42,070 bases of DNA from positions 1 through 42,070 of the forward strand of contig CACWPL010000026.1 in NCBI GenBank assembly GCA_902762785.1, given 5' to 3'. The notes beneath the pieces are model-generated. The model had not been told where the DNA came from, searched no databases, and saw nothing but the letters and a program-made list of their open reading frames with translations. The stretch is from an uncultured Ruminococcus sp. (GTDB taxonomy: Bacteria > Bacillota > Clostridia > Oscillospirales > Ruminococcaceae). The position numbers and the translations under genes were made by a program. Below are positions 6,690-24,705 of this stretch, in pieces (position 1 is the first letter of the stretch; each line of letters begins with the position of its first letter).

Positions 6690-6817
6690 GCGGCGTCCCC
6701 ATGCAGAGGGAAGCACGATGTTAGTTATATGCAACAAATGGCGGAGACCGTCTATCATCCTTCGTCAAAAACGACCTTGCAAGTTAGCGTATGGTCATCA
6801 AATATAGCCTTTATCAC

Positions 6818-6845: not shown

Positions 6846-6874
6846 TTGACAAATGGAAAGACGAATGATATAAT
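6846..6874 (+). promoter_or_regulatory. Consensus sigma-A promoter of the iron-uptake locus
   Basis: TTGACA (6846-6851) and TATAAT (6869-6874) with a 17-base spacer. About 100 bases of leader precede the FTR1 gene. The leader holds a short inverted repeat, AGGCC and GGCCT, around 6889-6905. Such a strong core promoter on an iron gene would be expected to need repression, but no classical iron box is evident. Confidence 0.87.
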
Positions 6875-6973
6875 ATGAACTGCGAATGAGGCCGGAGGCG
6901 GCCTTATCCAATGCCTATCGGTTAGCTTTTGCACACTAAATAAGCAATGACGAACAGAAGGGAAGGATCCTAC

Positions 6974-8635
6974 ATGACAGCGGCGCGCTGCAAACGCCTG
7001 ACCGCACGCATCGCTCTGGTGCTGACGGCGTTTCTGATCTTCATGACCACGCTGACGGGCCTGCACGCCTTCGCGGCGAACGGCGAATACATCGCAACAT
7101 GGGCCGATTACAAGGACCAGGGCGGCAAGGCCGACACCTGGAACGACGTCGCGAACGCGATGGATGCCGTGTTCACGGCGGCGGACGAGCTCTATCAGGC
7201 CGGTGACGCGGAAGGGGCTTTCGATGCCGTCAACGCCGGCTATTACGGCTACTACGAGACCACCGGCTTCGAGCGCGTGGCGATGGGCTACATCGCCGGA
7301 TCGCGCAAGACCGAGGTCGAGCTGCAATTCAGCGCGACCAAGTCCGCCACCAAGGGCGGCACGACAGACGAGTTCTGGGAAGAGCTGAACACTCTGAGCC
7401 AGATGATCCACGAGGACGCCAACAAGCTCGACGGCGTCGGTGACACCGGCGAGAGCGGCCTGACCCGTGACGGCGAGACCGCTGACGCGGCGCCCGCCTC
7501 CGAGGCAGACGCCGAGACGGCTGCCGCAGACGAGGCCGCCGCAGAGACGACCTCCGTCACGCCCGGCGCGAATGCCGTGAGCGTGGGCGGCGGCGGCGGC
7601 GGATGGGTCACGTTCATGGCCTGCTTCGGCATCATCCTCCGCGAGGGCCTCGAGGCGATCCTGGTCGTGGGCGCGATCATCGCGTACCTCGTCAAGTCCG
7701 GCAACAAGGACAAGCTCAAGTATGTTTACATCGGCTGTGTGCTGGCGATCGCAGCGAGCTTCGTATGCGCATGGCTCCTCGACCTGCTCAAGCTGGCCAA
7801 CAGCGCCAACCAGGAGGTCATCGAGGGCATCACAGCACTGATCGCGGTCGTCGTCCTCTTCTACGTCAGCAACTGGATGGTCTCCAAGGCCGAGTCCGAG
7901 GCGTGGACGAAGTACATCGACGATCAGGTGAAGGTCTCTGCCGAGACGGGCAGCGTCTTCACGCTCGGCTTCACAGCGTTCCTGGCGGTGTTCCGTGAGG
8001 GCGCGGAGGTCATCCTCTTCTTCCAGCCGCTGCTCGGCGACGACAAGCGGATGGTCTGGGGCGGCTTCGCACTGGGCGCGGCCGTGCTGGCGGTCGTGTT
8101 CGTGCTGATCCGGTCCTTCAGCGTCAAGCTGCCGATCCGGCCGTTTTTCCTGGGCACGAGCATCCTCATGTTCATCATGTCCATCTCCTTCCTCGGCTCC
8201 GGCATCAAGGAGCTGATCGAGGGCGACGTCATCGGCATGACGAGCCCCGCATGGCTCTCCGCCCTCATCCCGACCAACAACGTCATGGACGTGCTGGGCA
8301 TCTTCCCCTGCTTCGAGACGCTGATCCCGCAGCTCATCCTGATCCTGATCACGGTGATGATCTTCGTGATGCAGGATTGGAGCACGAATCGCCGCGAGGC
8401 CGGTCTGCTGGCCATCGTGTTCGGCGGACTGGGACTGCATCAGTTCTACCTCGGCAAGTATGGCAAGGGCCTGCTCTGCGTGGTGTTCTGCTGGACGTTC
8501 ATCCCCGCCGTCATCGGCGTGGCACAGGGCATCCACTATCTGACCGAGACGGACGAGCAGTTCGAGGCAGAGCGCGCACCGAAGCCGAAGAAGGCCAAGG
8601 CGCCCAAGGCCAAGAAGGCCGCCGCCGCCAAGTAA
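6974..8635 (+). CDS. FTR1-family iron permease with C-terminal TM2 domain
   Basis: A 553-residue membrane protein. A signal peptide (about 1-36) is followed by an extracytoplasmic helical region and a Gly/Ala/Glu-rich linker to about 212. The FTR1 permease then carries the two iron-binding motifs REGLE (223-227) and REGAE (341-345). The last part, GGLGLHQFYLGKYGKG (about 483 onward), is a TM2 domain, followed by a Lys/Ala-rich tail. The start at 6974 is chosen for the GGAAGGA site; an ATG at 6947 lacks one. It should import iron across the membrane in concert with the P19-like lipoprotein and ABC genes downstream, as in Campylobacter P19 and E. coli FetMP loci. The TM2 fusion is unusual. Confidence 0.92.
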   Translation: MTAARCKRLTARIALVLTAFLIFMTTLTGLHAFAANGEYIATWADYKDQGGKADTWNDVANAMDAVFTAADELYQAGDAEGAFDAVNAGYYGYYETTGFERVAMGYIAGSRKTEVELQFSATKSATKGGTTDEFWEELNTLSQMIHEDANKLDGVGDTGESGLTRDGETADAAPASEADAETAAADEAAAETTSVTPGANAVSVGGGGGGWVTFMACFGIILREGLEAILVVGAIIAYLVKSGNKDKLKYVYIGCVLAIAASFVCAWLLDLLKLANSANQEVIEGITALIAVVVLFYVSNWMVSKAESEAWTKYIDDQVKVSAETGSVFTLGFTAFLAVFREGAEVILFFQPLLGDDKRMVWGGFALGAAVLAVVFVLIRSFSVKLPIRPFFLGTSILMFIMSISFLGSGIKELIEGDVIGMTSPAWLSALIPTNNVMDVLGIFPCFETLIPQLILILITVMIFVMQDWSTNRREAGLLAIVFGGLGLHQFYLGKYGKGLLCVVFCWTFIPAVIGVAQGIHYLTETDEQFEAERAPKPKKAKAPKAKKAAAAK

Positions 8636-8643
8636 GACACAAG

Positions 8644-8716
8644 TCTTTTATCGTCCCTGCGTTTGCGGGGGCGTGAGATAAAAGAACGGATCGACGCACG
8701 CTCAAGCGTGGATCCG
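8644..8716 (+). promoter_or_regulatory. Two consecutive hairpins between FTR1 and P19 genes
   Basis: The first hairpin pairs TCTTTTATC (8644-8652) with GATAAAAGA (8677-8685) around an inner GC stem. The second pairs CGGATC (8687-8692) with GATCCG (8711-8716) and CACGCT with AGCGTG inside. There is no T tail, so these look more like mRNA-processing or stability elements, or an attenuator, than a plain terminator. They may set the ratio of lipoprotein to permease. Confidence 0.5.
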
Positions 8717-8759
8717 GAAGGGTATTTTCTCTTTTCAAAATAACAAGGAGGTCACAACG

Positions 8760-9434
8760 ATGAAGAAGATCATTGGCATCTCGCTGATCGCTGCGATGGC
8801 GCTGTCCCTGACGGCCTGCGGCGGTTCGACGAGCAGCACTGCTGAGTCGGCGACGGATGCAGCTACCACCGCTGCTGAGAGCGCAGCCGACGAGTCCAAG
8901 GAGGAGGTCACCGCAGAGGTCAAGGAGGAGGCACAGGCTCCCGCCGTTGGCCAGGAGGAGGGCTTCACCGAGATCCCGATCTTTGAGGATCAGGAAGTCG
9001 GCTTCATGAACGTTTCTGCCGTATACTTCCAGCCGGTACCGATGTCCGGCGGCAACGAGAGCGTCGAGGACTTCGACCTGCACCTAGAGGCCGACATCTC
9101 CGCACTGGCCAACAAGCTGGGCTACGGCGTCGGCGACTGGGTACCGTACCTGACGGTAGACTATGATGTGATCGGCAGCGACGGCAACTCCGCAGCTTCC
9201 GGCACCTTCATGGAGATGAGCGCTTCCGACGGCCCGCACTACGGCGCGAACATCAAGCTGCCGGATGCGGATACCTACACCCTGAAGCTCACCATCCACA
9301 GCCCTGAGGAGAACGGCTATCTGCTGCACATCGACGAGGAGACCGGTCCTGGCGGTTCCTTCGATGAGTACTTTGCAGACGGCAACCTCACCGTTGAGGT
9401 CGGCGGCTGGGAGTACATCCCGCAGGAGTGGTAA
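8760..9434 (+). CDS. P19/Tp34-family iron-binding lipoprotein
   Basis: A 224-residue lipoprotein with a signal peptide and lipobox LTAC (Cys20), an Ala/Ser/Glu-rich linker to about 65, then the Fe_transp (P19/Tp34) beta-sandwich domain. By manual alignment to Campylobacter P19, the metal ligands are all kept: His108 and Glu110 in HLEAD, Met153, His160 in SDGPHYG, and His190 in LLHID. The family supplies iron to a partner FTR1 permease. Here the protein is lipid-anchored on the outer face of the membrane, as expected without a periplasm. It is placed directly after the FTR1 gene. Ribosome site: AAGGAGG. Confidence 0.92.
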   Translation: MKKIIGISLIAAMALSLTACGGSTSSTAESATDAATTAAESAADESKEEVTAEVKEEAQAPAVGQEEGFTEIPIFEDQEVGFMNVSAVYFQPVPMSGGNESVEDFDLHLEADISALANKLGYGVGDWVPYLTVDYDVIGSDGNSAASGTFMEMSASDGPHYGANIKLPDADTYTLKLTIHSPEENGYLLHIDEETGPGGSFDEYFADGNLTVEVGGWEYIPQEW

Positions 9435-9455
9435 GCTACTGCTAACAAGTGCGAT

Positions 9456-9480
9456 GCGCCGCGATCTCTCGCGGCGCTTT
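9456..9480 (+). terminator. Hairpin with short T tail after the P19 gene
   Basis: GCGCCGCGA (9456-9464) pairs with TCGCGGCGC (9469-9477), then TTTGT. The short tail suggests partial termination, leaving the lipoprotein mRNA more abundant than that of the downstream membrane genes. Confidence 0.6.
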
Positions 9481-9548
9481 GTGCGCTGTGAGATGTTTCC
9501 TATGGCAAAGAACGCGGTGGGCACCGCCGCGAAGGGAGGGTCAACATT

Positions 9549-10832
9549 TTGCTGAAATATTTTATCGACACGACACAAGCGCTCATCACCGCCGCGCTCA
9601 TCACCGGTCTGGTCTTCGGCTATGCGCGCGCGGCCTTCGGAAAGGCCGGGCGGTATACCGTGCTGATCGGCAGCCTCCTCGGCGTGCTCAGCGGCGGCGT
9701 GATGGCCTATCTCAAGAACGCGACCAAAAAGATCGACACCTCGATGTGGAACCTGCGGATCTTCTCCGTCTCGCTCGCGGTGCTGGTGCTGTTCCTCATC
9801 CTGTCCGCTGTGACGGCCGGGATGCGCAGCAAAAAGGGCAAGAAGGCGCCGCCCAAGGCGCTCTTCATCCTGGACGAGGCGCGGGCGGTCCTGCTGGCGG
9901 TCATCGTCTGCGGGACGCTGCTGTATGCGCTGCCGGACGTGTTCACCTATCCGTATTCCATTTTGCTCGTCGAGAAGTCCGTTTTGTCCACGACGTTCAT
10001 CGTCAAGGTGATCGGCATCCTCTTTGGCCTAGGTCTGGTCTTTTTGGCGGGACTGGCTGCGAACAGAGGCAGCGAGCGCCTTGGCCGCACGACGGCTTTC
10101 TGGGCGATGACAGCCGTGCTGGCCGTCAATGCCGCACGGCAGGTGACGGTATGCCTGCGCGTCATGCTGACCAAGCGCATGATCGCCTCGACGCCGACGC
10201 TCTTCAACATCGCGAAGAATGCCGCGAACCATGACACGCTGTTCATCTACCTGTCGCTGCTGGTGTGCCTGGTGGTCGCGGTGCTGCTCTGGGCACGCAC
10301 GTCCGTCATCAAGGAGCCCTACAGCAACCCCGCGGAGCACCGCAAGCTGCGCAAGAAGCGCCTGGTGAGCCGCCGCTGGGGCGTGGTGGCCGCGCTCTGC
10401 CTCGTCATGACGTTCATGGATATGACCGTGCTGAAAGCGGCGACCAACAAGACCGTGGAGCTCTCCCCCGTGGAGGACACGCGCTTCGACGACGAGAACG
10501 TCTATGTCACCTTTGAGCAGGTGGAGGACGGGCATCTGCATCGCTTCGCCTATGTGACCGAGAACGGCGTGCAGATCCGATTCATCGTCATCAAGAAGCC
10601 CAATTCCTCCTCCTACGGCATCGGCCTCGACGCCTGCGACATCTGCGGCGAGACGGGCTATTACGAGAAGGACGGCCAGGTGGTCTGCAAGCTCTGCGAC
10701 GTGGTCATGAACATCAACACCATCGGCTTCAAGGGCGGCTGCAACCCCATCGTCATCCCCTACACGATCGAGAACGGCAGCATCATCGTCCCGATCGAGG
10801 GACTGGTCGCCTACGAGCACGAGTTCAAGTAA
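9549..10832 (+). CDS. DUF2318-domain integral membrane protein of the iron-uptake system
   Basis: A 427-residue protein with several membrane helices in the first 250 residues and, after a last helix near 275-300, an exported C-terminal DUF2318 domain. This contains paired CxxC motifs, CDIC and CKLC about 18 residues apart, then FKGGCNPI, consistent with a metal or redox centre. In Campylobacter the corresponding gene sits between P19 and the ABC permeases, as here. The start is TTG at 9549 with a GGGAGGG site eight bases upstream; no better ATG exists. Function is inferred from the conserved neighbourhood. Confidence 0.85.
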   Translation: MLKYFIDTTQALITAALITGLVFGYARAAFGKAGRYTVLIGSLLGVLSGGVMAYLKNATKKIDTSMWNLRIFSVSLAVLVLFLILSAVTAGMRSKKGKKAPPKALFILDEARAVLLAVIVCGTLLYALPDVFTYPYSILLVEKSVLSTTFIVKVIGILFGLGLVFLAGLAANRGSERLGRTTAFWAMTAVLAVNAARQVTVCLRVMLTKRMIASTPTLFNIAKNAANHDTLFIYLSLLVCLVVAVLLWARTSVIKEPYSNPAEHRKLRKKRLVSRRWGVVAALCLVMTFMDMTVLKAATNKTVELSPVEDTRFDDENVYVTFEQVEDGHLHRFAYVTENGVQIRFIVIKKPNSSSYGIGLDACDICGETGYYEKDGQVVCKLCDVVMNINTIGFKGGCNPIVIPYTIENGSIIVPIEGLVAYEHEFK

Positions 10833-10842
10833 GGAGGGCGCT

Positions 10843-12135
10843 ATGTTTCTGCGAATGATCAAAGGGACACTGCTGCGGCAGTGGAAGAAGATGCTGATGA
10901 TCGCCTTCACCATCGCGCTCGGTTCCTCGCTCGCCACGGCCATGCTGGGCGTCATGCTCGATGTGGGCGACAAGGTGAACCAGGAGCTGAAGACCTACGG
11001 TGCGAACATCACCGTCGTGCCCAAGCGCGCCTCCGTCATCGGCGACCTCTATGAGCTGGAGGACGGCGGCACGTCCGGCGCCTACCTCAAGGAGGACGAG
11101 CTCGGCAAGATCAAGACGATCTTCTGGGCGTTCAACATCGTGGACTATGCCCCCTTCCTGAACGCCGCCGCCACCCTTGATGACGGCAGCGAGGTGACGG
11201 TCGTCGGGACATGGTTCGACCATCATATGGACCTCCCCACGGGCGAGCAGCTCGACGCCGGTGTCGTCAGCATGCGGAGCTGGTGGGAGATCGAGAGCGG
11301 CGCCTGGCTCGACGAGCAGGCGGGCGCCGATCCCGATGCAGCCATGGTCGGCACGGCGCTCGCGCAGCGCCTCGGCGTGACGGCGGGCGACACGATCCAC
11401 GTCACCGGCAGCACGTCTGACCGCACGCTCAAGGTCGTCGGTGTGTACGATGCGGGCGGAGATGAGGACGACCAGATCTACGTCCAGCTCGGCACCGCAC
11501 AGGCGCTCGACAGCCTCGAGGGCAGCATCGACAGCATCGAGGTCAGCGCTCTGACCACCCCGGACAACGAGCTGGCCGAGCGCGCCGCGAAGGACCCCTC
11601 GTCCCTGACGGTGAGCCAGTACGAGACCTGGTACTGCACGGCCTATGTCTCCTCGATCTGCTACCAGATCCAGGAGGTCATCACCGACTCGGTCGCGTCC
11701 CCGGTACGGCAGGTGGCCGATTCCGAGGGCGCCATCCTGGAGAAGACCCAGCTCCTCATGATCCTGATCACGATCCTGAGTCTGATCGGTGCGGCGCTGG
11801 GCATCTGCAACCTCGTCACCGCGAGCGTGATGGAGCGTGCCAGTGAGATCGGCCTGATGAAGGCCATCGGCGCGCAGAACGGCGCAGTCTCGGCGCTCGT
11901 CCTCACGGAGATCCTGATCACGGCCGTCATCGGCGGCGTGGCGGGCTTCTTCGCAGGATGGGGCTTCGCACAGATCATCGGCCACAGCGTTTTCGGCGCG
12001 GCCATCAACATCCGTCCCATGGTCATCCCGATCGTGGCGGTGCTGGTGGTGCTCGTGACGCTGATCGGCAGCATCCCCGCCATGCGGATGCTCCTCAGGC
12101 TCCGTCCTGCGGAGGTCCTCCACGGCGGGCACTAA
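10843..12135 (+). CDS. FtsX/MacB-type ABC transporter permease (first)
   Basis: A 430-residue permease with one N-terminal helix (about 18-38), a large extracytoplasmic domain (about 40-295) and three C-terminal helices from about 303, including the FtsX signature region ERASEIGLMKAIGA. It ends RLRPAEVLHGGH, typical of the family. The start has GGAGG eight bases upstream. With the next permease and ATPase it forms a heterodimeric ABC complex equivalent to the ABC part of Fet/P19 iron loci. What it moves, or whether it acts mechanically, is not known from sequence. Confidence 0.88.
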   Translation: MFLRMIKGTLLRQWKKMLMIAFTIALGSSLATAMLGVMLDVGDKVNQELKTYGANITVVPKRASVIGDLYELEDGGTSGAYLKEDELGKIKTIFWAFNIVDYAPFLNAAATLDDGSEVTVVGTWFDHHMDLPTGEQLDAGVVSMRSWWEIESGAWLDEQAGADPDAAMVGTALAQRLGVTAGDTIHVTGSTSDRTLKVVGVYDAGGDEDDQIYVQLGTAQALDSLEGSIDSIEVSALTTPDNELAERAAKDPSSLTVSQYETWYCTAYVSSICYQIQEVITDSVASPVRQVADSEGAILEKTQLLMILITILSLIGAALGICNLVTASVMERASEIGLMKAIGAQNGAVSALVLTEILITAVIGGVAGFFAGWGFAQIIGHSVFGAAINIRPMVIPIVAVLVVLVTLIGSIPAMRMLLRLRPAEVLHGGH

Positions 12136-12150
12136 AAGGAGGCGGTCACA

Positions 12151-13314
12151 ATGAAGAAAAGTACCATGTTCGTTCGGATGATCACCGCCTCGCTCATGCG
12201 GCGGCGCTCGCGCATGGTGGTGGCGCTCCTGTCCATCGCCATCGGCGCGACCGTCCTTTCGGGGCTCGTGACCATCTATTACGATGTCCCGCGGCAGATG
12301 GGCGCGCAGTTCCGTAACTACGGCGCCAACATGATCCTCACGCCCTCCGGCGACAGCATGACGCTCGACGATGTCGCTGCGGGTGCCGCCTGCATCCCGT
12401 CCGACCAGCTCGTCGGGATGACGCCCTACCGCTACGAGACCGTCCGCATCCGCGAGACCCCGGTCGTGGCGGCCGGTACCGACCTCGAGAGCGCCAAGAA
12501 GACGAGCCCCTTCTGGTCGGTGGAGGGCGAATGGCCCTCTGCGAACGGCGAGCTCCTGCTCGGCGCGGCCGTGGCGGAGCAGTATCGTCTCAAGGTCGGC
12601 GACACCATCGAGGTGACGTACACCCCCGAGGAGCTGGCCGACGCCTCCGCCGATCCCGCGACCGTGACGGCCGATGAGATGATCCTCTTCGATGTCACGG
12701 GCATCCTGGACACCGGCGGCTCCGAGGAGGATCACATCTACATGTACATGGCCGACCTCGAGACCCTGACCGGCACGGCCAACAAGGCCGATGTGGCGGA
12801 GCTGAGCGTCTCGGCCTCGGGCGACGTGCTCGCGGGCTATGTCGAGCGGGTGGCGCAGGGCAGCGATGCTGTGAGCGCGCGGCTCGTCAAGCGCGTGACC
12901 GCCTCGGAGGCGACCGTCCTCAGCAAGCTCCAGGCGCTCGTGCTCCTCGTGACGACCGTCGTCCTGGCGCTGACCATGATCTGCGTCGCCACGACCATGA
13001 CGGCCGTCGTGACCGAGCGCCGCAAGGAGATCGGCCTGCGCAAGGCCATCGGCGCTTCGGACAGCAGCATCATCAAGGAGTTCATGGGCGAGAGCATGCT
13101 CCTCGGACTCCTCGGCGGCGTGCTGGGGTCGATGCTGGGCTTCCTCTTCGCGCAGGAGGTCAGCGTCCATGTGTTCAGCAGCACCATCTCGTTCCGGCCG
13201 CTGCTGGTGCCGATCACGATCATCGTATCCATCGCCGTCACGGGACTCTCGAGCCTGCTGCCGATCCGCAGCGCGACCGAGGTCGACCCGGCGCTGGTAT
13301 TGAAAGGAGAATGA
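12151..13314 (+). CDS. FtsX/MacB-type ABC transporter permease (second)
   Basis: A 387-residue partner of the preceding permease with the same layout: an N-terminal helix, an outer domain opening with FRNYGANMILTPSG, and three C-terminal helices with ERRKEIGLRKAIGA. The two share the YGANI/M motif just after helix one, so they are diverged paralogues. Its stop overlaps the ribosome site and start of the ATPase gene, and the start follows AAAGGAGG. Confidence 0.88.
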   Translation: MKKSTMFVRMITASLMRRRSRMVVALLSIAIGATVLSGLVTIYYDVPRQMGAQFRNYGANMILTPSGDSMTLDDVAAGAACIPSDQLVGMTPYRYETVRIRETPVVAAGTDLESAKKTSPFWSVEGEWPSANGELLLGAAVAEQYRLKVGDTIEVTYTPEELADASADPATVTADEMILFDVTGILDTGGSEEDHIYMYMADLETLTGTANKADVAELSVSASGDVLAGYVERVAQGSDAVSARLVKRVTASEATVLSKLQALVLLVTTVVLALTMICVATTMTAVVTERRKEIGLRKAIGASDSSIIKEFMGESMLLGLLGGVLGSMLGFLFAQEVSVHVFSSTISFRPLLVPITIIVSIAVTGLSSLLPIRSATEVDPALVLKGE

Positions 13315-13316
13315 CC

Positions 13317-14012
13317 ATGAGCCTTCTGGAACTCAAGAACGTATACAAGATCTACGGCGAGCTGCACGCCCTCGACGACGTGAGCCTCAAGGTAGAGAAG
13401 GGGGAGTGGGTCTCCATCATGGGCCCCTCCGGCTCCGGCAAATCCACCATGATGAACATCATCGGCTGCATGGACAAGCCCTCCAAGGGCGAGGTCCTGC
13501 TCGACGGCGTGGACATCTCCAAGCAGAGCGCCAAGGAGCTGACCACGATCCGCCGCGACAAGATCGGCCTGATCTTCCAGCAGTTCCACCTGGTCAACTA
13601 CCTGACCGCGCTCGAGAACGTGATGCTCGCGCAGTATTACCACAGCCTCCCGGACGAGAAGGAGGCGCTCGAGGCGCTCGACCGTGTGGGACTGGCGGAC
13701 CGTGCGCGGCATCTGCCGAGCCAGCTCTCCGGCGGTGAGCAGCAGCGTGTCTGCGTGGCACGCGCGCTCATCAACTACCCCGAGATCATCCTCGCCGACG
13801 AGCCGACCGGCAACCTTGATGAGGCGAACGAGGCCATCGTCGTCGACCTGTTCCACAAGCTCCACAATGAGGGCACGACCCTGATCGTCGTCACCCACGA
13901 TCCGGAGGTCGCGGAGGTCGCCCAGCGCACGCTCGTGCTGCGCAGCGGCCGTCTCGCCAAGGAGGTCGTCAACCAGAACTTCACCGGCCAGATCCATTTT
14001 GACCGTTCGTGA
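13317..14012 (+). CDS. ABC transporter ATP-binding protein (MacB/LolD type)
   Basis: A 231-residue ATPase. Walker A is GPSGSGKST, the Q-loop is FQQFHLV, the signature is LSGGEQQR, Walker B is IILADEPTG, and the H-loop is VVTHD. The MacB/LolD subfamily partners FtsX-like permeases. ATG at 13317 is chosen over 13311 because GGAG at 13306-13309 would be too close to the latter. It is the last gene of the first half of the locus; a new promoter follows at once. Confidence 0.92.
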   Translation: MSLLELKNVYKIYGELHALDDVSLKVEKGEWVSIMGPSGSGKSTMMNIIGCMDKPSKGEVLLDGVDISKQSAKELTTIRRDKIGLIFQQFHLVNYLTALENVMLAQYYHSLPDEKEALEALDRVGLADRARHLPSQLSGGEQQRVCVARALINYPEIILADEPTGNLDEANEAIVVDLFHKLHNEGTTLIVVTHDPEVAEVAQRTLVLRSGRLAKEVVNQNFTGQIHFDRS

Positions 14013-14014
14013 GC

Positions 14015-14043
14015 TTGCATTTCGCGATCAAGTATGCTATAAT
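14015..14043 (+). promoter_or_regulatory. Internal promoter for the flavin/fumarate-reductase half
   Basis: TTGCAT (14015-14020) and TATAAT (14038-14043) are 17 bases apart, directly after the ATPase stop. It would give the genes from 14108 to 21124 their own transcript. Confidence 0.75.
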
Positions 14044-14050
14044 AAAAAAT

Positions 14051-14080
14051 GGCCGCGCTGTCCTGCGGGATGACGCGGCC
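14051..14080 (+). promoter_or_regulatory. Leader hairpin before the FMN-binding lipoprotein
   Basis: GGCCGCG (14051-14057) pairs with CGCGGCC (14074-14080), with a possible inner TCC/GGA stem. It lies at the very 5' end of the transcript expected from the internal promoter. It could protect the mRNA or act as a control element; no T tail follows. Confidence 0.45.
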
Positions 14081-14107
14081 TGTCCCCTAAAGGAAGGCGG
14101 ATCCAAG

Positions 14108-14560
14108 ATGACTAGGAACAAGACCCTTGCGCTCCTTACGGCCATCGGCCTGATCGGCGCATTTTGCACGGCCTGCGGCGAGAAGCATTACGCCGACGGC
14201 ACCTATAAGGCCCAGAGCGCGGAATATATCAATGATGAGGACGACTCCACCGCCGGCAACGGCTACGGCGTCGTGGAGCTGACGATCAGCGGCGGCGCCA
14301 TCACGGCCTGCACGTTCCACACCTACGAGCTCGACGGCACCCTCAAGGACGAGGAGTACGGCAAGGAGAACGGCGAGATCGCCAACCGCGATTTCTACAA
14401 CAAGGCGCAGAAGGCCAACGCCGCCTGCGAGAAGTACGCCGAGGCGCTCGTCAAGACGGGCAGCATCAAGGATGTCGATGCCATCAGCGGCGCGACCGTG
14501 AACTACAATGAGTTCGTCGAGGCCGTCGGCATCGCGCTCAAGGACGCGGAGACCGACTGA
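14108..14560 (+). CDS. FMN-binding domain lipoprotein-like protein
   Basis: A 150-residue exported protein. After an N-terminal signal (about 1-23, ending in a weak lipobox CTAC, Cys23) comes an FMN_bind domain: DGTYKAQS, GVVELTISGGAITAC and, near the end, the flavinylation motif DAISGAT (124-130). ApbE enzymes attach FMN to the final Thr of such motifs. The domain is known from RnfG, NqrC and PplA and carries electrons on the outer face of the membrane. No ApbE gene is in the window. It heads the second transcript, before a cytochrome b and fumarate-reductase subunits. Confidence 0.88.
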   Translation: MTRNKTLALLTAIGLIGAFCTACGEKHYADGTYKAQSAEYINDEDDSTAGNGYGVVELTISGGAITACTFHTYELDGTLKDEEYGKENGEIANRDFYNKAQKANAACEKYAEALVKTGSIKDVDAISGATVNYNEFVEAVGIALKDAETD

Positions 14561-14561
14561 C

Positions 14562-15068
14562 ATGAGCAAGCGCAGGATGCTCCGCCATATCCTCGCCGAC
14601 TTAGGAGTCGTGGCACTGGTGCTGGGCGTGCCGTTCTTCACCTCAGACTGGTTCCGTGCGAAGGTGACGGGCGCGGACGCTGTCTCCGGCGCGACCACCG
14701 TGATCGAGGCGCCCTCGGGGGACTATCTCGTCCTCCTGAACAACGATGCCCTCGAGGAGGACGCGTTCTGGGAGACCTTCTTCGTCGGCGATGAGGTCGG
14801 CTATTGCTTTGAGGACATCACCTGCATGATCGGCGCCGGCGATACCGGCGCGGCGGACATGGCGGCGAGCTTCTGCTCCCGTCTGCCCGAGGATCAGATG
14901 CGCGTGCGCGTCGAGGACATCACGCTCATGCTCTCGCGCGCGGACAGCGGCCGATTCCAGGTCATCCTCCTCTCCCAGGAGATGGCCGAGCGCACCGGCG
15001 CACTGTCCGCGGTCGAGCATGGCGCGAAGGCTGTGACATTCACAGGAAAGGACGGGGAGGTCCCGTGA
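14562..15068 (+). CDS. Membrane-anchored protein with a flavinylation-like motif
   Basis: A 168-residue protein with a single N-terminal membrane helix (about 11-28) and a small extracytoplasmic domain. Right after the helix stands DAVSGAT (39-45), the same Dxx(S/T)xA(T/S) pattern that ApbE modifies and that the preceding protein carries. No other part of the FMN_bind fold is obvious, so this may be a minimal flavin carrier or a decayed relative. The start one base after the previous stop and the GTGA overlap with the next gene imply tight coupling. The family is not recognised. Confidence 0.75.
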   Translation: MSKRRMLRHILADLGVVALVLGVPFFTSDWFRAKVTGADAVSGATTVIEAPSGDYLVLLNNDALEEDAFWETFFVGDEVGYCFEDITCMIGAGDTGAADMAASFCSRLPEDQMRVRVEDITLMLSRADSGRFQVILLSQEMAERTGALSAVEHGAKAVTFTGKDGEVP

Positions 15069-15616
15069 GAAAATGGAACGCCATCATCAGCATGACCGTG
15101 CTGGCGCTGTTCCTCGTCCACGCTGTCGTGGGCGGATTCCAGATCATCGGCGTGCTGCCCGGCGGGTCGCCGGTCATGAAGTGGCTTTCCTGGATCATGG
15201 CGGCGCTGATCGGCGTGCATGTGGTCATCGGCATCGTCCTGACCGTGCAGACCCTTCATGCCCAGCGCAAGGCCGGCGTCAGCTACCCCAAGGAGAACCG
15301 CCTCTTCTGGACCAGACGGCTCAGCGGCTTCGCGGTGATGCTCTTCATCGTGTGTCACCTGCTGATCTTCGCGGTGCAGCAGGGGGCGGACGGTACGGTG
15401 CGGCTCCATCCGTTCGGGGCGGCGGAGCTCGCGACCCAGCTCCTGCTCGTGGCATCGGTCGCCGTCCACGTCCTGACGAACATCAAGCCCCTGCTCATCG
15501 CCATGGGCGCGCGGGGGATGCGGGAGCTGTTCACGGACATCCTGCTCGTGCTGACGCTCCTGCTGCTGTTCATGGGCGCGGCGTTCGTGATCTATCTCAT
15601 CCGCTGGAACGTCTGA
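15065..15616 (+). CDS. Five-helix cytochrome b, fumarate reductase/SdhC-like membrane subunit
   Basis: A 183-residue protein with five predicted helices at about 5-28, 38-60, 85-105, 120-142 and 158-180. Histidines at 19, 52, 98 and 135 fall in or at the ends of successive helices, as in the dihaem SdhC/FrdC subunits of Bacillus and Wolinella. It would pass electrons between menaquinone and the FrdA/FrdB-like subunits encoded next, or to the outer flavoproteins encoded before it. It starts with GTG at 15065, overlapping the previous stop, with GGGAGG upstream. Confidence 0.8.
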   Translation: MRKWNAIISMTVLALFLVHAVVGGFQIIGVLPGGSPVMKWLSWIMAALIGVHVVIGIVLTVQTLHAQRKAGVSYPKENRLFWTRRLSGFAVMLFIVCHLLIFAVQQGADGTVRLHPFGAAELATQLLLVASVAVHVLTNIKPLLIAMGARGMRELFTDILLVLTLLLLFMGAAFVIYLIRWNV

Positions 15617-15630
15617 GCAAGGAGGTCGAC

Positions 15631-17214
15631 ATGCATCCTGTATACATCATCGGCGCGGGACTGGCGGGACTCTCGGCCGCGCTCACGCTCGCGGAGCAGG
15701 GACGGCCGAGCGTGCTCGTCTCGCTGCAGCCGTCCGAGCGGGCGCAGTCCGTGCTGGCGGAGGGCGGCATCAACGCCGCGCTCGATACCATGGGCGAGGG
15801 CGACACCGTGGAGGATCATTACAACGACACCCTCCGCGGCGGCGTCTGGCTCGCTGACCCGAACGCTGTCGCCGCGCTGACGGCGGGCGCGCCGGACGTG
15901 GTGCGGCGGCTCGCGGCGATGGGCGTCCCGTTCAACCGAGAGGACGGCCACATCGTCCAGCGCAATTTCGGCGGCCAAAAGCACAAGCGCACGGCCTACG
16001 CCCGCAGCTCCACCGGCAAGATCCTCATGAACGCCGTCATCGACGTGGTGCGGCGCCATGAGGCCGCGGGACTGGTCACGCGCCTGCCCCATCACGAGTG
16101 CCTCCGGCTGCTGACGGAGGAGGGACGCTGCATCGGCGTCCGCATCCGCGACACCTACACCGGCGCGATGACGGACGGCTTTGGCCGTGTCATCCTCTGC
16201 ACCGGCGGGCTCTGCGGCCTCTTCCCCGGCCACACCACCGGCACCACCCAGAACACCGGCGACGTCACCGCGATGGCCTTTTCCCTCGGCGCGGCGCTGG
16301 CCGGACTGGAGATGCTCCAGTACCACCCGACCACTGTCGGCATCGCGGGCAAGCGCTGTCTCGTCACCGAGGCGGCGCGCGGCGAGGGCGGGCGGCTCTG
16401 CATCCGCCGGGACGGGGCGCTGTGGTACTTCATGGAGGAAAAATACCCGGAGCTGAAAAATCTCATGCCGCGTGACGTGGTCGCAAGGGAGATGTACTTC
16501 GTCCGGCGCGACCTGGGCGGCAGCGTCCTCCTGGATATGACGTCCCTGCCCGAGGCGACGTGGGAGAACAAGCTCTCCGACCTGCGCGAGGAGCTGATGC
16601 ATTACCTCTCCCTCGACCCCAAAAAGGACCTGATCCCGGTCGAGGAGGGCATCCACTATTTCATGGGCGGCATCGACACCGACATCGGCCACCGCACGTC
16701 CCTCCCCGGCCTGTATGCCGCGGGGGAGTGCGCCTGTCAGTACCACGGGGCGAATCGTCTGGGGGGCAATTCCCTCCTGGGCGCGCTGTTCGGCGGACAG
16801 ACGGCCGCGCAGAGCGTGATGGGCGATGTCCATGATGATGACGACGTGCCGGCGCCGCGGCCTTTCACGGGCGAGGAGCCACTGGCTGCGCCGGTGTCGG
16901 CGGCTTTCGCGGAGGCCGTCTGCGAGATCTTGCTGGGCGGCATGGGCATCGTGCGCAGCGAGGCGGGACTGACGGCGGCACTGGACGCACTGTCCGCGCT
17001 GACGCCCGGGAACGCGCGGGAGCGCTGCCGTCTGCGTCTGGCAGAGGCGATGCTGACCGCCGCCCGCGCACGCCGCGAGAGCCGCGGGGCACATTACCGG
17101 GAGGACTGGCCGCAGACGGACGAGTCCTTTCGCAAGACGGCCGTCGCCGAGATGCAGGGGGACGCGGTGACGATCACGTTCCGCCCCCTGCCGGAGAGGA
17201 GGGAGACGTCATGA
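15631..17214 (+). CDS. Fumarate reductase/succinate dehydrogenase-like flavoprotein subunit
   Basis: A 527-residue flavoprotein with FAD-binding GAGLAGLSAAL (8-18). The active-site segments are kept: TEAARGEGG with the catalytic Arg, HYFMGGI, and HGANRLGGNSLL near GECACQ. The usual flavin-linking His of the S-H-T/S-V segment is replaced: SERAQSVLAEGG has Gln39, so FAD is probably not covalently bound. It is somewhat short for FrdA because of a reduced C-terminal domain. There is no signal peptide, so it acts on the cytosolic face. L-aspartate oxidase is a related alternative, but the adjoining cytochrome b and iron-sulfur genes favour a fumarate-reductase-type complex. Confidence 0.87.
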   Translation: MHPVYIIGAGLAGLSAALTLAEQGRPSVLVSLQPSERAQSVLAEGGINAALDTMGEGDTVEDHYNDTLRGGVWLADPNAVAALTAGAPDVVRRLAAMGVPFNREDGHIVQRNFGGQKHKRTAYARSSTGKILMNAVIDVVRRHEAAGLVTRLPHHECLRLLTEEGRCIGVRIRDTYTGAMTDGFGRVILCTGGLCGLFPGHTTGTTQNTGDVTAMAFSLGAALAGLEMLQYHPTTVGIAGKRCLVTEAARGEGGRLCIRRDGALWYFMEEKYPELKNLMPRDVVAREMYFVRRDLGGSVLLDMTSLPEATWENKLSDLREELMHYLSLDPKKDLIPVEEGIHYFMGGIDTDIGHRTSLPGLYAAGECACQYHGANRLGGNSLLGALFGGQTAAQSVMGDVHDDDDVPAPRPFTGEEPLAAPVSAAFAEAVCEILLGGMGIVRSEAGLTAALDALSALTPGNARERCRLRLAEAMLTAARARRESRGAHYREDWPQTDESFRKTAVAEMQGDAVTITFRPLPERRETS

Positions 17215-17930
17215 AGGTCCTGCTCGACATCCTGCGCCGTGAGAACGCCGAAGCGGCGCCGTGGCACCAGTGCATCCCCTTCGAGACGGCCGACACGAAC
17301 GCCACGGTCGCCTCGGCGCTCACGGCGATCAATGCCGATCCGTCCCTGCGCGACACGGAGGGACGCCCGGTGACGCCGATCCGATGGGAATGCTCGTGTC
17401 TGCAAAAGAAATGCGGCGCGTGCGCCATGCGGATCAATGGGGTCCCGCGGCTCGCCTGTGACGCGCAGCTCGCAGACCTGGGCGAGACCGTCCGGCTCGC
17501 GCCGCTGGGGAAGTTCCCGGTCGTGGCCGACCTCATGGTCGACCGCAGCGGGATGATGCAGCAGCTCCGCGACATGCGCCTCTGGCTCGAGACGGACGAG
17601 CCCGCCGCCGATCCCGATGCCCTCGCGGCATCCTACGAGGCCTCGCGCTGTCTGCAATGCGGGTGCTGTTTGGAGGTCTGTCCGAATTTTTATGTCGACG
17701 GCGATTTTTACGGCATGGCCGCCGCCGTCCCCGTCTCGCGGATCGTCGCCGAGGCGGACGAGGCACAGATGGCCGACCTGCGGCGGGCGTACCGTTCCCA
17801 TGTCTATGAGGGATGCGGCAAGTCACTGGCCTGCCGGGACATCTGCCCCGCCGGCATCGACATCGAGGGACTGCTCGTGCGCTCGAATGCCGCCGCCGTC
17901 TGGAAACGGCGCCGGAAGGGGCGCAAATGA
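17211..17930 (+). CDS. Fumarate reductase/succinate dehydrogenase-like iron-sulfur subunit
   Basis: A 239-residue protein of normal length for FrdB/SdhB. The N-terminal ferredoxin domain binds [2Fe-2S] through Cys63, Cys68, Cys71 and Cys83 (CSCLQKKCGACAM to LAC). The C-terminal domain has CLQCGCCLEVCP (Cys147, 150, 153, 157) and CGKSLACRDICP (Cys202, 208, 212) for the 4Fe and 3Fe centres. The start overlaps the flavoprotein stop through ATGA. It would wire the flavoprotein to the cytochrome b. Confidence 0.9.
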   Translation: MKVLLDILRRENAEAAPWHQCIPFETADTNATVASALTAINADPSLRDTEGRPVTPIRWECSCLQKKCGACAMRINGVPRLACDAQLADLGETVRLAPLGKFPVVADLMVDRSGMMQQLRDMRLWLETDEPAADPDALAASYEASRCLQCGCCLEVCPNFYVDGDFYGMAAAVPVSRIVAEADEAQMADLRRAYRSHVYEGCGKSLACRDICPAGIDIEGLLVRSNAAAVWKRRRKGRK

Positions 17931-18823
17931 AGTCGAAGCTCGCGGCCTGGATCGTCGGGATCATCGTGCTCGCGCTGCTGACGTGCGCGTCGTGGCGGTC
18001 GGGGCAGGCGTGGGCGGCACAGCGGCACTACGACCTCCCCTCGGAGCTGAGCCTCACGCTCTCGAATTCCGACCGCATCATCGCCCAGCTCCGTCATGCA
18101 CTGAAAAATCGGAGCTGGCGCGTGACACTGACCTTCCCGACCGAGCGAGAGGTCGACGACATGCCTGCGCTCGTCGCCGCGCTGATGGACTGCGCCGTCG
18201 CGGAGACGGACGACCCCTGTGAGGGGGACTACCTCCTCTACCAGTACGGCGGCTATGAGCTGCGCTACAGCCGGACGGACGGCGTCTACACCGTCAGCAT
18301 CCTCCCCGACTACTACACCACCGCCGAGGAGGAGGCCGCCGTCACGGAGGCACTGGCCGCGCTCCCGCCGCTCTATCCGCCCGATGCCGACGAGGCCGCC
18401 CGCGTCCGCGCGGTCTGCACGTTCATCTGTGACACGGCCGACTTCGACGTCGTCCACCGTGACCACCCGAATTGGCACATCAAGTCCACGGCCTACGGTG
18501 CCCTGATCCGCCGGAGCGCGGCCTGTCAGGGCTACGCCGTGCTGGCCTATCGGATGCTGCGCGAGGCCGGGATCGGCGCACGCGTCATCACCGGCACGGC
18601 CTACAACGAGACGACCGGCGCCGAGGAGCGCCATGCCTGGGATCTGGTGCAGATCGGCGGCTACTGGTACCACCTCGACCTGACCTGGATGGACCAGCAG
18701 GAGACGGAGGACTGGTACCTCAAGACCGACGCCGACTTCCCCTATCACCGCCGCGATCCGCAGTTCGCGGACGAGGCCTTCTATGCCGCCTACCCCATGG
18801 CGGACGACCCTATCTCCCCATGA
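17927..18823 (+). CDS. Membrane-anchored transglutaminase-like protein
   Basis: A 298-residue protein with an N-terminal membrane helix or uncleaved signal (about 6-28) and an outer transglutaminase-like cysteine-protease fold. The triad is visible as Cys200 in SAACQGYAVL, His236 in RHAWDLV and Asp251 in YHLDLTW. Such proteins cleave or cross-link peptides or may have lost activity; here the triad is intact. It starts by ATGA overlap with the iron-sulfur gene. A protease-like protein inside an iron/electron-transfer operon is unexpected, and its substrate may be one of the exported partners or the cell wall. Confidence 0.83.
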   Translation: MKSKLAAWIVGIIVLALLTCASWRSGQAWAAQRHYDLPSELSLTLSNSDRIIAQLRHALKNRSWRVTLTFPTEREVDDMPALVAALMDCAVAETDDPCEGDYLLYQYGGYELRYSRTDGVYTVSILPDYYTTAEEEAAVTEALAALPPLYPPDADEAARVRAVCTFICDTADFDVVHRDHPNWHIKSTAYGALIRRSAACQGYAVLAYRMLREAGIGARVITGTAYNETTGAEERHAWDLVQIGGYWYHLDLTWMDQQETEDWYLKTDADFPYHRRDPQFADEAFYAAYPMADDPISP

Positions 18824-18840
18824 CAGAAAGGATGATCTTG

Positions 18841-19257
18841 ATGAAGAAAAATACGGCTGCGATGATCGCCGACATCGTGCTCCTGGTGCTCTGCGCCGCA
18901 CTGATGCTGGGCGTGCGTCTCGTGTTCCACGCCTGCGGACCCAAGGAGGACGGGAGCTGGATGACCTGCCATTGGGCAGAGATGAGCGTGTTCGCCCTCT
19001 CGATCGCGATGACGGTCACGGCGCTCGCAAGGCTCCTCGTCCGTGACGAGGGGATGCGCCGCGGCATGGCGCTCGCGCTCGTGCCGTTCGCGGCGGCGGC
19101 GGCGGTGCTGCCGCAGGGCGTCATCCGTCTGTGCATGATGCAGGATATGCGCTGCCATGCGATGATGCGCCCGGCGGTGATCTTGTTCGCGGTGCTGATC
19201 GCGGCGGCGGCCGTCGTCTGCACAGTGCTGCGGCGCGGAGAGAAGGCGGCGCGATGA
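18841..19257 (+). CDS. DUF4418-family membrane protein
   Basis: A 138-residue protein with about four membrane helices. Cys and His cluster in FHACGPKEDGSWMTCHWAEM and RLCMMQDMRCHAMMRP, both apparently on the outer side, which could bind metal or haem. It resembles DUF4418 proteins, which in Clostridia often accompany an FtsX permease and ATPase, as here. Three in-frame ATGs exist (18820, 18832, 18841); 18841 has AAAGG nine bases upstream, while 18820 would overlap the previous stop. Confidence 0.78.
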   Translation: MKKNTAAMIADIVLLVLCAALMLGVRLVFHACGPKEDGSWMTCHWAEMSVFALSIAMTVTALARLLVRDEGMRRGMALALVPFAAAAAVLPQGVIRLCMMQDMRCHAMMRPAVILFAVLIAAAAVVCTVLRRGEKAAR

Positions 19258-20456
19258 AGCTGCATCTCCCCATCCGCGACCTCCTCGGCCGCCCCGGCCG
19301 GATGGCGCTCCTCGCGCTGCTGACGGCGCTCCTCGCACTGGCCGTGCTGGCGGGGACACTGATCGTCACGAGCCTGCGCACCGGGCTCGGCTCGCTGAGC
19401 GCGCGGCTCGGTGCGGACATCATGGTCGTCCCCTATGAGGCGACGACGCAGTCCGACCTCAAGAGCATCGTCCTCCAGGGCGCGACGGGCTATTTCTACA
19501 TGGACAGCGACCGCGCCGAAAAGATCATGGAGCGCGAGGGCATCGCCCGCTGCTCCACGCAGCTCTTCCTCGCCTCGGCGAGCGCGGGATGCTGCTCGGT
19601 GCCGGTGCAGATCATCGGCTTCGACCCGGAGACGGACTTCACCATCACCCCCTGGATCCGCCGCAGCGGCGGGGGCGAGCTGGGACTCATGGACGTGGTC
19701 GTCGGGAACGACCTGAACGCGTTCGTGGGCGATGTGCTGACGTTCTACGGGGTACAGTGCCATGTGGCCGCCAAGCTCGACAAGACCGGCACCTCCTTCG
19801 ACACGGCCGTCTTCGCCTCCACGGAGACGATCCAGGCGCTGATCGCGGCCTCGCTCGAGAAGGGGATGAACACCTTCGAGCACATCGACCCGGACAAGGT
19901 CGTCTCCTGCGTCCTCATCGACGTGGCGGACGGCTATGTGCCGGAGGAGGTCGCGGGGGACATCGACCTGCATGTCAAAAAGGTCCGCGCGATCCAGACC
20001 AAGGAGATGATGTCCGGGATCTCGGACAGTCTCACCGGCATGTCGGACATCATCGGCATCCTGATCGCGGCGGTCTGGGTGCTGGGCGCGGCGGTGCTGC
20101 TGGTGGCGTTCACCATGAGCGTGAACGCGCGGCGCAAGGAGTTCGCGGTGCTGCGGATCGTGGGCGCCTCAAGGGGGCGTCTGGCGTGGATCGTGCTGTG
20201 TGAGGCGCTGCTGACGGGGCTCGTCGGCGGCATCGCAGGTGCGGCGGCGGGGCTCGTGATCGTGCTGCCGTTCAGCAATGCCATCGGCGACTCGCTCGGG
20301 ATGCCCTTCCTGCTGCCCAGTGTCGGGACGATCGCGGTGTACACGGTGCTGGCCGTGGCCGCGGCGGCACTGACGGGCGCAGCGGCGGCGGGCGTCTCGG
20401 CGTGGCGCATCAGCCGAATCGACGCCGGCCTGATCGTAAGGGGGGACAACGGATGA
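19254..20456 (+). CDS. FtsX/MacB-type ABC transporter permease (third)
   Basis: A 400-residue permease with an N-terminal helix (about 17-40), an outer domain starting SARLGADIMVVPYEA, and three C-terminal helices with the FtsX region ARRKEFAVLRIVGA. It is coupled by ATGA to the DUF4418 gene and to the ATPase that follows, forming a second ABC unit in the same locus. Its outer domain contains the cysteines of SAGCCSVPV, absent from the two earlier permeases. Confidence 0.87.
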   Translation: MKLHLPIRDLLGRPGRMALLALLTALLALAVLAGTLIVTSLRTGLGSLSARLGADIMVVPYEATTQSDLKSIVLQGATGYFYMDSDRAEKIMEREGIARCSTQLFLASASAGCCSVPVQIIGFDPETDFTITPWIRRSGGGELGLMDVVVGNDLNAFVGDVLTFYGVQCHVAAKLDKTGTSFDTAVFASTETIQALIAASLEKGMNTFEHIDPDKVVSCVLIDVADGYVPEEVAGDIDLHVKKVRAIQTKEMMSGISDSLTGMSDIIGILIAAVWVLGAAVLLVAFTMSVNARRKEFAVLRIVGASRGRLAWIVLCEALLTGLVGGIAGAAAGLVIVLPFSNAIGDSLGMPFLLPSVGTIAVYTVLAVAAAALTGAAAAGVSAWRISRIDAGLIVRGDNG

Positions 20457-21124
20457 ATCTCATCGCCAAGGCCGTGCGCAAGGAGTTCCTGCGGGCGGCA
20501 CACGGGACGAACCGCTTCATCGCGGTACAGGACACGGACGTGACCCTCGCGGGCGGCACGCTCACCGTGCTGACCGGCCGCTCCGGCAGCGGCAAGACCA
20601 CGCTCCTGAACATGCTCGCCGGCCTCCTCACGCCGACGGCAGGGGAGGTGCTGCTCGACGAGACCTCGCTCTATGAGATGGACGACGGCGCGCTCTCCAA
20701 GCTCCGCGGCACGCGCTTCGGATGCATCCCGCAGGGGCAGACGGCGCTGCACAGCCTGACCGTGCGGGAGAACATCCTCCTGCCCTTCGCGCTCTGCGGG
20801 GGCAAGCCGGACGAGGCGCATCTCCAGTCGCTCTGCGAGACGCTGGGGATCGCGTCGCTCCTGGAGGCGCGTCCGGCGGAGCTGTCCGGCGGGGAGCTGC
20901 GCCGCGCGGCGATCGCGCGTGCGCTGGTGCATCGGCCGTCCGTGGTGCTCGCGGACGAGCCGACGGGCGACCTCGATGACGAGAACACGGCCACTGTGTT
21001 CCGCCTGCTCCGGGAGACGGCGCAGCAGGGCGCGGCCGTCCTCGTCGTGACCCACGAGACGGACGCCGCGCAGTATGCGGACGTCCTCCTGCGGATGGAC
21101 GCGGGCCGTCTCCTACAAGGATGA
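20453..21124 (+). CDS. ABC transporter ATP-binding protein (second unit)
   Basis: A 223-residue ATPase with Walker A GRSGSGKTT, Q-loop IPQGQTA, signature LSGGELRR, Walker B VVLADEPTG and H-loop VVTHE. It is MacB/LolD-like and paired with the overlapping permease gene. It is the last gene of the long locus; a 10-bp hairpin follows. Confidence 0.91.
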   Translation: MNLIAKAVRKEFLRAAHGTNRFIAVQDTDVTLAGGTLTVLTGRSGSGKTTLLNMLAGLLTPTAGEVLLDETSLYEMDDGALSKLRGTRFGCIPQGQTALHSLTVRENILLPFALCGGKPDEAHLQSLCETLGIASLLEARPAELSGGELRRAAIARALVHRPSVVLADEPTGDLDDENTATVFRLLRETAQQGAAVLVVTHETDAAQYADVLLRMDAGRLLQG

Positions 21125-21132
21125 TACCGAAG

Positions 21133-21165
21133 CTGCCTGCCGTGGATGAGGTCTGCGGCAGGCAG
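21133..21165 (+). terminator. Hairpin at the end of the iron/flavin locus
   Basis: CTGCCTGCCG (21133-21142) pairs perfectly with CGGCAGGCAG (21156-21165). The T tail is poor (TGTGCATCTTT), so termination is likely but may be incomplete. Nothing coding is seen from here to 21242. Confidence 0.6.
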
Positions 21166-24622: not shown

Positions 24623-24705
24623 CATACCTTCGGGAGCTGGATGGACGACGGCATCGGCACGCGCACGCGGACGTGTAAGGACTGCGGATTCGTGGAGACG
24701 GACGT
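23669..24705 (+). repeat. Tandem 84-bp repeats coding 28-residue CxxC units
   Basis: About thirteen units of roughly 28 residues follow the pattern C-x-x-C-G-x-x-E-T-x-x-H-x-(F/Y)-G-x-(W/Y)…D-G-T-H. Each unit has one CxxC and two conserved His, so each could bind zinc or form a disulfide. The units are diverged at DNA level. The TAG at 24620 lies in the twelfth unit, at a variable position just before the conserved His. Confidence 0.85.

What the first reader, a model, noticed from the sequence alone, without database searches (positions are those of the whole stretch)
6846..21165. Fet/P19-type iron uptake locus joined to a flavin, cytochrome b and fumarate-reductase module
Seen directly: FTR1, P19-like lipoprotein with all metal ligands, DUF2318, two FtsX permeases and an ATPase, followed colinearly by two proteins with flavinylation motifs, a five-helix cytochrome b, FrdA/FrdB-like subunits, a transglutaminase, DUF4418 and a second FtsX/ATPase pair. 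Known: P19/FetMP loci end with ABC genes and thioredoxin-like proteins. Inference: here electron supply to the outer face comes from a quinol/fumarate-reductase-type complex through covalently bound FMN, reducing Fe(III) or recharging the P19/DUF2318 proteins. Parts may be covered by surveys of flavinylated systems, but the full fifteen-gene combination looks unusual.
Basis: partly seen in the sequence, partly recalled or inferred. Interest (0 to 1): 0.88.

Follow-up and report, generated by a model that had tools for sequence, protein, structure and literature searches.

The report
Iron-uptake locus with built-in redox complex
A known bacterial iron-uptake gene set is here built together with a relative of respiratory complex II that appears to work without quinones, which gives a candidate for the missing electron link of this uptake system, although which way the electrons flow is not settled.

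Summary
FTR1-P19-DUF2318-FtsX-FtsX-ATPase-FMN is a published Gram-positive iron locus. New is the four-gene module after it: a membrane-anchored DUF6921-like protein, a diheme cytochrome b, FrdA and FrdB. The union recurs: of the 80 closest FrdA loci kept, 59 are joined to the iron genes, 8 are cut by a contig end, and 13 stand alone (12 of those genomes carry P19 elsewhere). In a 148-genome family sample P19 was in 6 genomes and this FrdA in 5 of those 6. No quinone-type UbiA was recognised in 7 module genomes, so a quinol link is unlikely. An inverted repeat upstream of FTR1 (29 of 40 regions, not the window's) suggests a DtxR/MntR-type iron regulon. The module also sits beside a ZntA-like ATPase. 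New variant of a known kind; function and direction untested.

The parts
6846..6874 (+). sigma-70 promoter, TTGACA-17-TATAAT, 12 of 12
6921..6936 (.). degenerate copy (2 mismatches) of the operator-like repeat GTTAG-N6-CTAAC found upstream of FTR1 in relatives; another 2-mismatch copy at 6720
6947..8635 (+). FTR1 iron permease, two REXXE motifs, C-terminal TM2 domain
8760..9434 (+). P19/Tp34-like iron-binding lipoprotein
9431..9446 (.). operator-like site, 1 mismatch, at the P19 stop codon upstream of the DUF2318 gene; terminator-like hairpin 9467-9493 follows
9549..10832 (+). DUF2318 / FtrD-like membrane protein (FetA-like), CxxC-x13-CxxC-x14-C
10843..12135 (+). FtsX/MacB permease a (FetB-like)
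12151..13314 (+). FtsX/MacB permease b (FetC-like)
13311..14012 (+). ABC ATPase a (FetD-like)
14108..14560 (+). FMN1: lipoprotein with FMN_bind domain and DAISGAT motif (canonical motif in 53 of 53 extracted relatives)
14562..15068 (+). [not shown]
15065..15616 (+). diheme cytochrome b of the SdhC/FrdC kind, five helices, His19/52/98/135 in 75 of 75 rows
15631..17214 (+). FrdA-like flavoprotein; Gln39 at the covalent-FAD His position; His232, Glu247, Arg250, Arg281, His342, Arg376 and Phe113 kept
17211..17930 (+). FrdB-like iron-sulphur subunit; cysteine pattern as for three clusters (reading of the pattern recalled)
17927..18823 (+). transglutaminase-like protein
18820..19257 (+). DUF4418 membrane protein (start at 18820 or a little later)
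19254..20456 (+). FtsX permease c
20453..21124 (+). ABC ATPase b

Best explanation
A P19/FTR1 iron-uptake locus has gained its own transmembrane electron conduit. FMN2, cytochrome b, FrdA and FrdB form a complex-II-like assembly that works without quinones: FAD and iron-sulphur clusters on the cytosolic side, two b hemes across the membrane, and covalent flavin (FMN1, perhaps FMN2) on the outer face, where P19, DUF2318 and FTR1 handle iron. It links the cytosolic fumarate/succinate couple to the redox step of iron import. Shown: gene content, conserved order, co-occurrence, residues, predicted folds. Inferred: that the parts form one chain, that the flavins are attached by ApbE, and that iron is the partner. 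Direction: I lean slightly towards inward flow with fumarate as sink (about 0.45), against outward flow for ferric reduction (about 0.4). The confidence given is for the direction-neutral statement.
Against: No biochemistry. The repeat (at most 1 mismatch, within 400 bases) precedes only 1 of 13 stand-alone modules, so those copies do not look regulated by it and may have a wider role. The window has only 2-mismatch copies before FTR1 (one 1-mismatch site at 9431), none at two of its three FeoA hits and two 2-mismatch matches at the third. A hairpin at 9467-9493 and a possible extended -10 before FMN1 mean that the genes need not be one transcript. FMN2's flavinylation is uncertain (canonical motif 12 of 57). 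P19-FMN loci of other families (5 of 5 such loci read) lack the module. The module also sits beside a ZntA-like ATPase, so iron need not be its only partner. Quinone could be scavenged, and the genomes are drafts. For the inward lean: a model for the C. jejuni system has the thioredoxin-like proteins relay reducing power (PMC10783030), and B. breve SifE is annotated as a possible ferric reductase.
Confidence: 0.6

Rival explanations
1. Outward version (first reader, without the quinol): the module takes electrons from cytosolic succinate or another donor, passes them through the hemes to FMN outside, and reduces Fe(III) for uptake. Membrane potential would help, as in other diheme succinate dehydrogenases.
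For: Ferric reduction or reducing power is the published guess for these loci (PMC6083913, PMC8238504, PMC10783030; passages and one discussion section); B. breve SifE is called a possible ferric reductase. Membrane-potential-requiring succinate oxidation by diheme enzymes is documented (PMC10308238, passages).
Against: Gln39 in 80 of 80 FrdA rows; non-covalent homologues are stated to reduce fumarate only (PMC9557727, passage). Of 29 more distant SdhA-type loci looked at, 25 show His there, one (L158, read in L187) Gln, three were not read. C. jejuni FetE/FetF may act as oxidases in vivo (PMC10783030).
Confidence: 0.3
2. Ordinary fumarate reductase: FrdAB-cytochrome b is simply a fumarate reductase of the cell and lies beside the iron genes because iron-starved cells induce both, or by history.
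For: Fumarate-site residues intact. Stand-alone copies mostly lack the repeat. In the window genome the only other hit (E up to 1e-10) is an L-aspartate-oxidase-like protein.
Against: Tight co-occurrence with P19; not found in 143 of 148 family genomes; no quinone prenyltransferase recognised to serve it; a P19 locus that keeps only FMN2 and cytochrome b.
Confidence: 0.2
3. General metal-redox module: FMN2/DUF6921-cytochrome b-FrdAB serves several metal transporters, iron import here and P1B-type efflux elsewhere, and is not specific to iron.
For: Gene run ArsR, ZntA-like ATPase, DUF6921, cytochrome b, FrdA, FrdB on one strand in L154 and L155; FrdA of L154 53% identical to the window's, also with Gln39.
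Against: Only two such loci seen, nearly identical, in genomes assigned to different families, so perhaps one event or a binning error.
Confidence: 0.25

Closest known systems
fetMP-fetABCDEF / P19 iron-uptake system (Campylobacter, E. coli)
   Same: FTR1, P19, DUF2318 protein, two FtsX permeases and ATPase in the same order
   Different: Thioredoxin-like FetE/FetF are replaced by FMN1, and a cytochrome b and FrdAB module is added; some Proteobacteria are said to have a cytochrome gene as eighth gene (PMC6083913, passage)
Gram-positive P19 clusters with an FMN-binding protein (PMC6083913; PMC8238504, 260 clusters); B. breve bfeUO-sifABCDE
   Same: An FMN-binding protein follows the ATPase
   Different: [quoted passage not shown] here one is encoded
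Type-B complex II (B. subtilis SQR, W. succinogenes and D. gigas QFR)
   Same: FrdA/FrdB plus one five-helix diheme cytochrome b; catalytic residues
   Different: No covalent-FAD histidine, no quinone prenyltransferase recognised, linked to extracytoplasmic flavin proteins and iron genes
DUF6921 (PF21914; PDB 3noh, RUMGNA_00914)
   Same: Fold of the soluble domain and, in L154/L155, the same four-gene order
   Different: The window protein scores below Pfam's cut-off; different neighbouring transporter

Membership tests
Fet/P19 iron-uptake locus | FTR1 permease with two REXXE motifs | tested here: met
Fet/P19 iron-uptake locus | P19 (PF10634), kin of solved P19 structures | tested here: met
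   E 3.9e-45; P19, FtrA and Tp34-type chains matched; which residues are ligands is recalled
Fet/P19 iron-uptake locus | DUF2318 protein, two FtsX permeases and ATPase in this order | tested here: met
Fet/P19 iron-uptake locus | induced by iron limitation | tested here: inconclusive
   Repeat in 29 of 40 upstream regions, only degenerate copies before FTR1 in the window; no expression data
Complex II, type B | FrdA/SdhA dicarboxylate site | tested here: met
   His232, Glu247, Arg250, Arg281, His342, Arg376 in 80 of 80 rows (window, 77 of the 80 loci, L014, L015); roles recalled
Complex II, type B | covalent FAD histidine | tested here: not met
   Gln39 in 80 of 80 rows; of 29 distant SdhA-type loci 25 have His, 1 Gln, 3 not read
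Complex II, type B | five-helix diheme cytochrome b | tested here: met
   [not shown]
Complex II, type B | quinone as partner | tested here: inconclusive
   no quinone-type UbiA recognised in 7 module genomes, one of them (G019) with an unidentified sub-threshold hit; acidic residue at the aligned quinol-site column in 9 of 75; scavenging not excluded
L-aspartate oxidase | Glu in place of Phe in the substrate loop | tested here: not met
   Phe113 in 80 of 80 rows; the genome's separate NadB-like protein has Glu; meaning of the position recalled
ApbE flavinylation substrate: FMN1 | FMN_bind domain and Dxx[ST]GA[ST] | tested here: met
   motif in 53 of 53 extracted relatives
ApbE flavinylation substrate: FMN2 | Dxx[ST]GA[ST] | tested here: inconclusive
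   present in the window; 12 of 57 extracted relatives; Gly to Ala lowers flavinylation to about 50% in one model (PMC12052999, passage)
DUF6921 | Pfam PF21914 score and fold | tested here: inconclusive
   [not shown]

The most novel reading that the evidence does not exclude
The module is an oxygen-free counterpart of the yeast ferroxidase-permease pair: Fe(II) held by P19 is oxidised outside, the electrons pass through covalent FMN and two b hemes to FrdAB, and cytosolic fumarate is the terminal acceptor, so that FTR1 is fed Fe(III) in an anaerobe. DUF6921 proteins would then be the flavin-bearing subunits of a quinone-free class of complex II that serves metal transporters in general.
Probability: 0.2. 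Interest if true: 0.93.

Novelty: new variant of a known kind. Interest (0 to 1): 0.72.

Why it matters
[quoted passage not shown] This module is a concrete, conserved candidate for that missing part in one lineage, which includes a record titled Ruminococcus albus 8 (L073). It would also be a complex II relative that exchanges electrons with extracytoplasmic flavin instead of quinone, and it gives a working hypothesis for DUF6921, a domain with a structure but no stated function. The direction question can be tested directly and bears on whether FTR1-type uptake needs iron to be reduced or oxidised.

Tried and rejected
Quinol as the electron source: disfavoured by the UbiA search. L-aspartate oxidase as the identity of FrdA: rejected by Phe113. 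Fur box upstream of FTR1: best matches hardly different from shuffles. Regulation of the stand-alone modules by the repeat: 1 of 13 with at most 1 mismatch; L074, L075 and L077 have 2-mismatch matches; 4 of 157 upstream regions in the same loci (L085's own included) have one at most 1 mismatch away. Recurrent neighbours of stand-alone modules: none clear. Exact repeat sites genome-wide: 1 place in the window genome, not at this locus (backwards control 0); 3 in G028 (control 2), of which one is about 30-40 bases before FTR1 by coordinates, one before a ZIP gene and one inside a large ORF; 4 in G912 (control 0), two at the P19 locus, one before flavodoxin, one some hundreds of bases before DUF3793. 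The careful FrdA tree did not finish, so the quick tree is used; the stand-alone label is also somewhat clustered on it (8 changes, shuffled mean 11.3). Foldseek alone gave the cytochrome only weak matches (best E 5.1e-03). In print: none of the papers listed by searches (0, 1, 22 with 20 listed, and 0), judged from listing, abstract or passages, describes the full combination; the library is open-licence PMC text, no supplements were read, and the supplement of PMC8238504 may list such clusters.

Rows dropped before counts: 80 of 309 confirmed FrdA relatives were kept by the tool; complete genes could be extracted for 77 FrdA, 74 cytochrome b, 57 FMN2 and 53 FMN1; 13 of 16 P19 genomes found were given to (G368, G826, G843 left out); L016 (G368) has only a fragmentary P19 match and is not counted.
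Full report
What is in the window. Fifteen + strand genes run from 6947 to 21124, several overlapping by four bases. The first seven, FTR1-P19-DUF2318-FtsX-FtsX-ATPase-FMN1, match the published P19/Fet locus. Liu et al. [quoted passage not shown] Meheust et al. [quoted passage not shown] In B. breve the homologous genes, the FMN gene sifE included, and apbE are needed when ferrous iron is chelated (PMC5449479, passages). The window's genome has one ApbE.

Is the union more than chance? A scan of the named species genomes (84,980 by the tool's description) with the FrdA alignment confirmed 309 relatives and kept the best 80, mostly records titled as MAGs or uncultured bacteria, with one titled Ruminococcus albus 8. 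Of the 80, 59 are joined to FTR1, P19, DUF2318, FtsX or FMN1; 8 are cut by a contig end with downstream genes of the locus present; 13 stand alone. Of 36 loci with wide flanks, 32 hold the first eleven genes and 26 all fifteen. Twelve of the 13 stand-alone genomes have P19 elsewhere; the one in L091 does not. L050's genome appears, by identical coordinates, to be G035 met earlier, and the genomes of L077 and L098 also hold a second, P19-linked copy (L125, L132). In two searches of 148 family genomes with the same handles, P19 was in 6 and this FrdA in 5, all five among the six; without regard to kinship the chance is about 1 in 10^8 (my arithmetic, not a call). Of 13 P19 genomes searched, 7 carry the module-type FrdA. 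In the quick FrdA tree, which holds 12 of the 13 stand-alone copies, the label changes 8 times, at least 7 forced by well-supported branches: the module left the locus repeatedly, yet P19 stayed in nearly every such genome. In L122 the P19 locus keeps FMN2 and cytochrome b while FrdAB sits elsewhere with a second cytochrome b (L059).

Limits of the union. P19-FMN loci of other families lack the module: L013 and L017-L020, 5 of 5 such loci read. G090 has P19 with no other gene of the locus found in the stretch read (L012). So the module is a lineage's addition, not a general need of the system.

Regulation. Upstream of FTR1 an inverted repeat GTTAG-N6-CTAAC occurs (at most 1 mismatch) in 29 of 40 regions (window and 39 loci; the window is not among the 29), against a mean of 0.45 and a maximum of 2 in 20 shuffles; other spacings reach at most 9. 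It also occurs in 10 of 17 further FTR1 upstream regions. In L098 the repeat precedes a DtxR/MntR-type repressor followed by FeoA, and a DUF3793 gene followed by a flavodoxin-like gene; L053 has kin of the latter two behind the same repeat (flavodoxin in L098 and L053 by eye). In two other genomes it lies before flavodoxin and a ZIP gene and near DUF3793. In the window it is degenerate before FTR1, with a 1-mismatch site at 9431, so for the window regulation is by analogy with its same-genus relative G028, whose exact site lies about 30-40 bases before FTR1 by coordinates. Against simple co-regulation: 12 of 13 stand-alone modules have no such site (at most 1 mismatch) within 400 bases, and the window has a hairpin after P19 and a possible internal promoter before FMN1.

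Quinone and direction. A UbiA search over 13 P19 genomes, whose control rang in 14 of 14 well-known genomes, gave one hit over threshold, in the window's genome; that protein's best NCBIfam model is decaprenyl-phosphate phosphoribosyltransferase (194.6 bits, just under that model's cut-off of 207), with quinone-type models far lower. G019 had one unidentified sub-threshold hit. So menaquinone synthesis is unlikely in the 7 module genomes, though they are drafts. A paper on complex II states that non-covalent homologues only reduce fumarate (PMC9557727, passage). With an intact fumarate site and Gln39, inward flow to fumarate is the simpler reading of the sequence. C. jejuni work concludes that the thioredoxin-like counterparts may act as oxidases, which fits, but the model in the same paper has them relay reducing power, which does not (PMC10783030, abstract and discussion read). 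Inward flow also works against the membrane potential, and ferric reduction is the usual guess for these loci. I keep both, nearly even.

Second setting of the module. A search of 291 class genomes for DUF6921 found 10 with a match and 5 over the cut-off. The two strong ones (L154, L155) are runs of ArsR, ZntA-like ATPase, DUF6921 (motif DAVTGAT), cytochrome b, FrdA and FrdB on one strand. FrdA of L154 is 53% identical to the window's and also has Gln39. The two loci are nearly identical, so this may be one event; the other eight matches were not followed.

Verdict. Observation confirmed; interpretation partly supported: link yes, quinol unlikely, direction open and perhaps reversed. New variant of a known kind.

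Noticed in passing
L154:3504-9610 and L155:100-5978: DUF6921-cytochrome b-FrdA-FrdB in one run of genes with a ZntA-like P1B ATPase and an ArsR regulator; suggests a metal-linked complex II class.
   Followed up: partly
upstream of FTR1 in 29 of 40 regions; L098 13365 and 15062; L138, L139, L140 at 1501: Inverted repeat GTTAG-N6-CTAAC near iron genes, flavodoxin, DUF3793, a DtxR/MntR-type repressor with FeoA, and a ZIP transporter: probable metal-repressor operator.
   Followed up: partly
L187:3780-6649: Another cytochrome b-FrdA-FrdB set with Gln at the FAD position, no FMN2 seen, near a ferredoxin-like and sulphite-reductase-like genes (by eye).
   Followed up: no
window 21689-24895: Papain-family protease with lectin-like domain and a dockerin-like small protein after it (by eye), downstream of the locus.
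   Followed up: no
L012 (G090:C13:3500-22500): P19 gene without FTR1 or the other Fet genes in the 19 kb read.
   Followed up: no
window 9431-9493: Operator-like site and strong hairpin between the P19 and DUF2318 genes; possible second transcription unit or attenuator.
   Followed up: no
window 14012-14108: TGCTATAAT-like extended -10 in the gap before FMN1; possible internal promoter (by eye).
   Followed up: no
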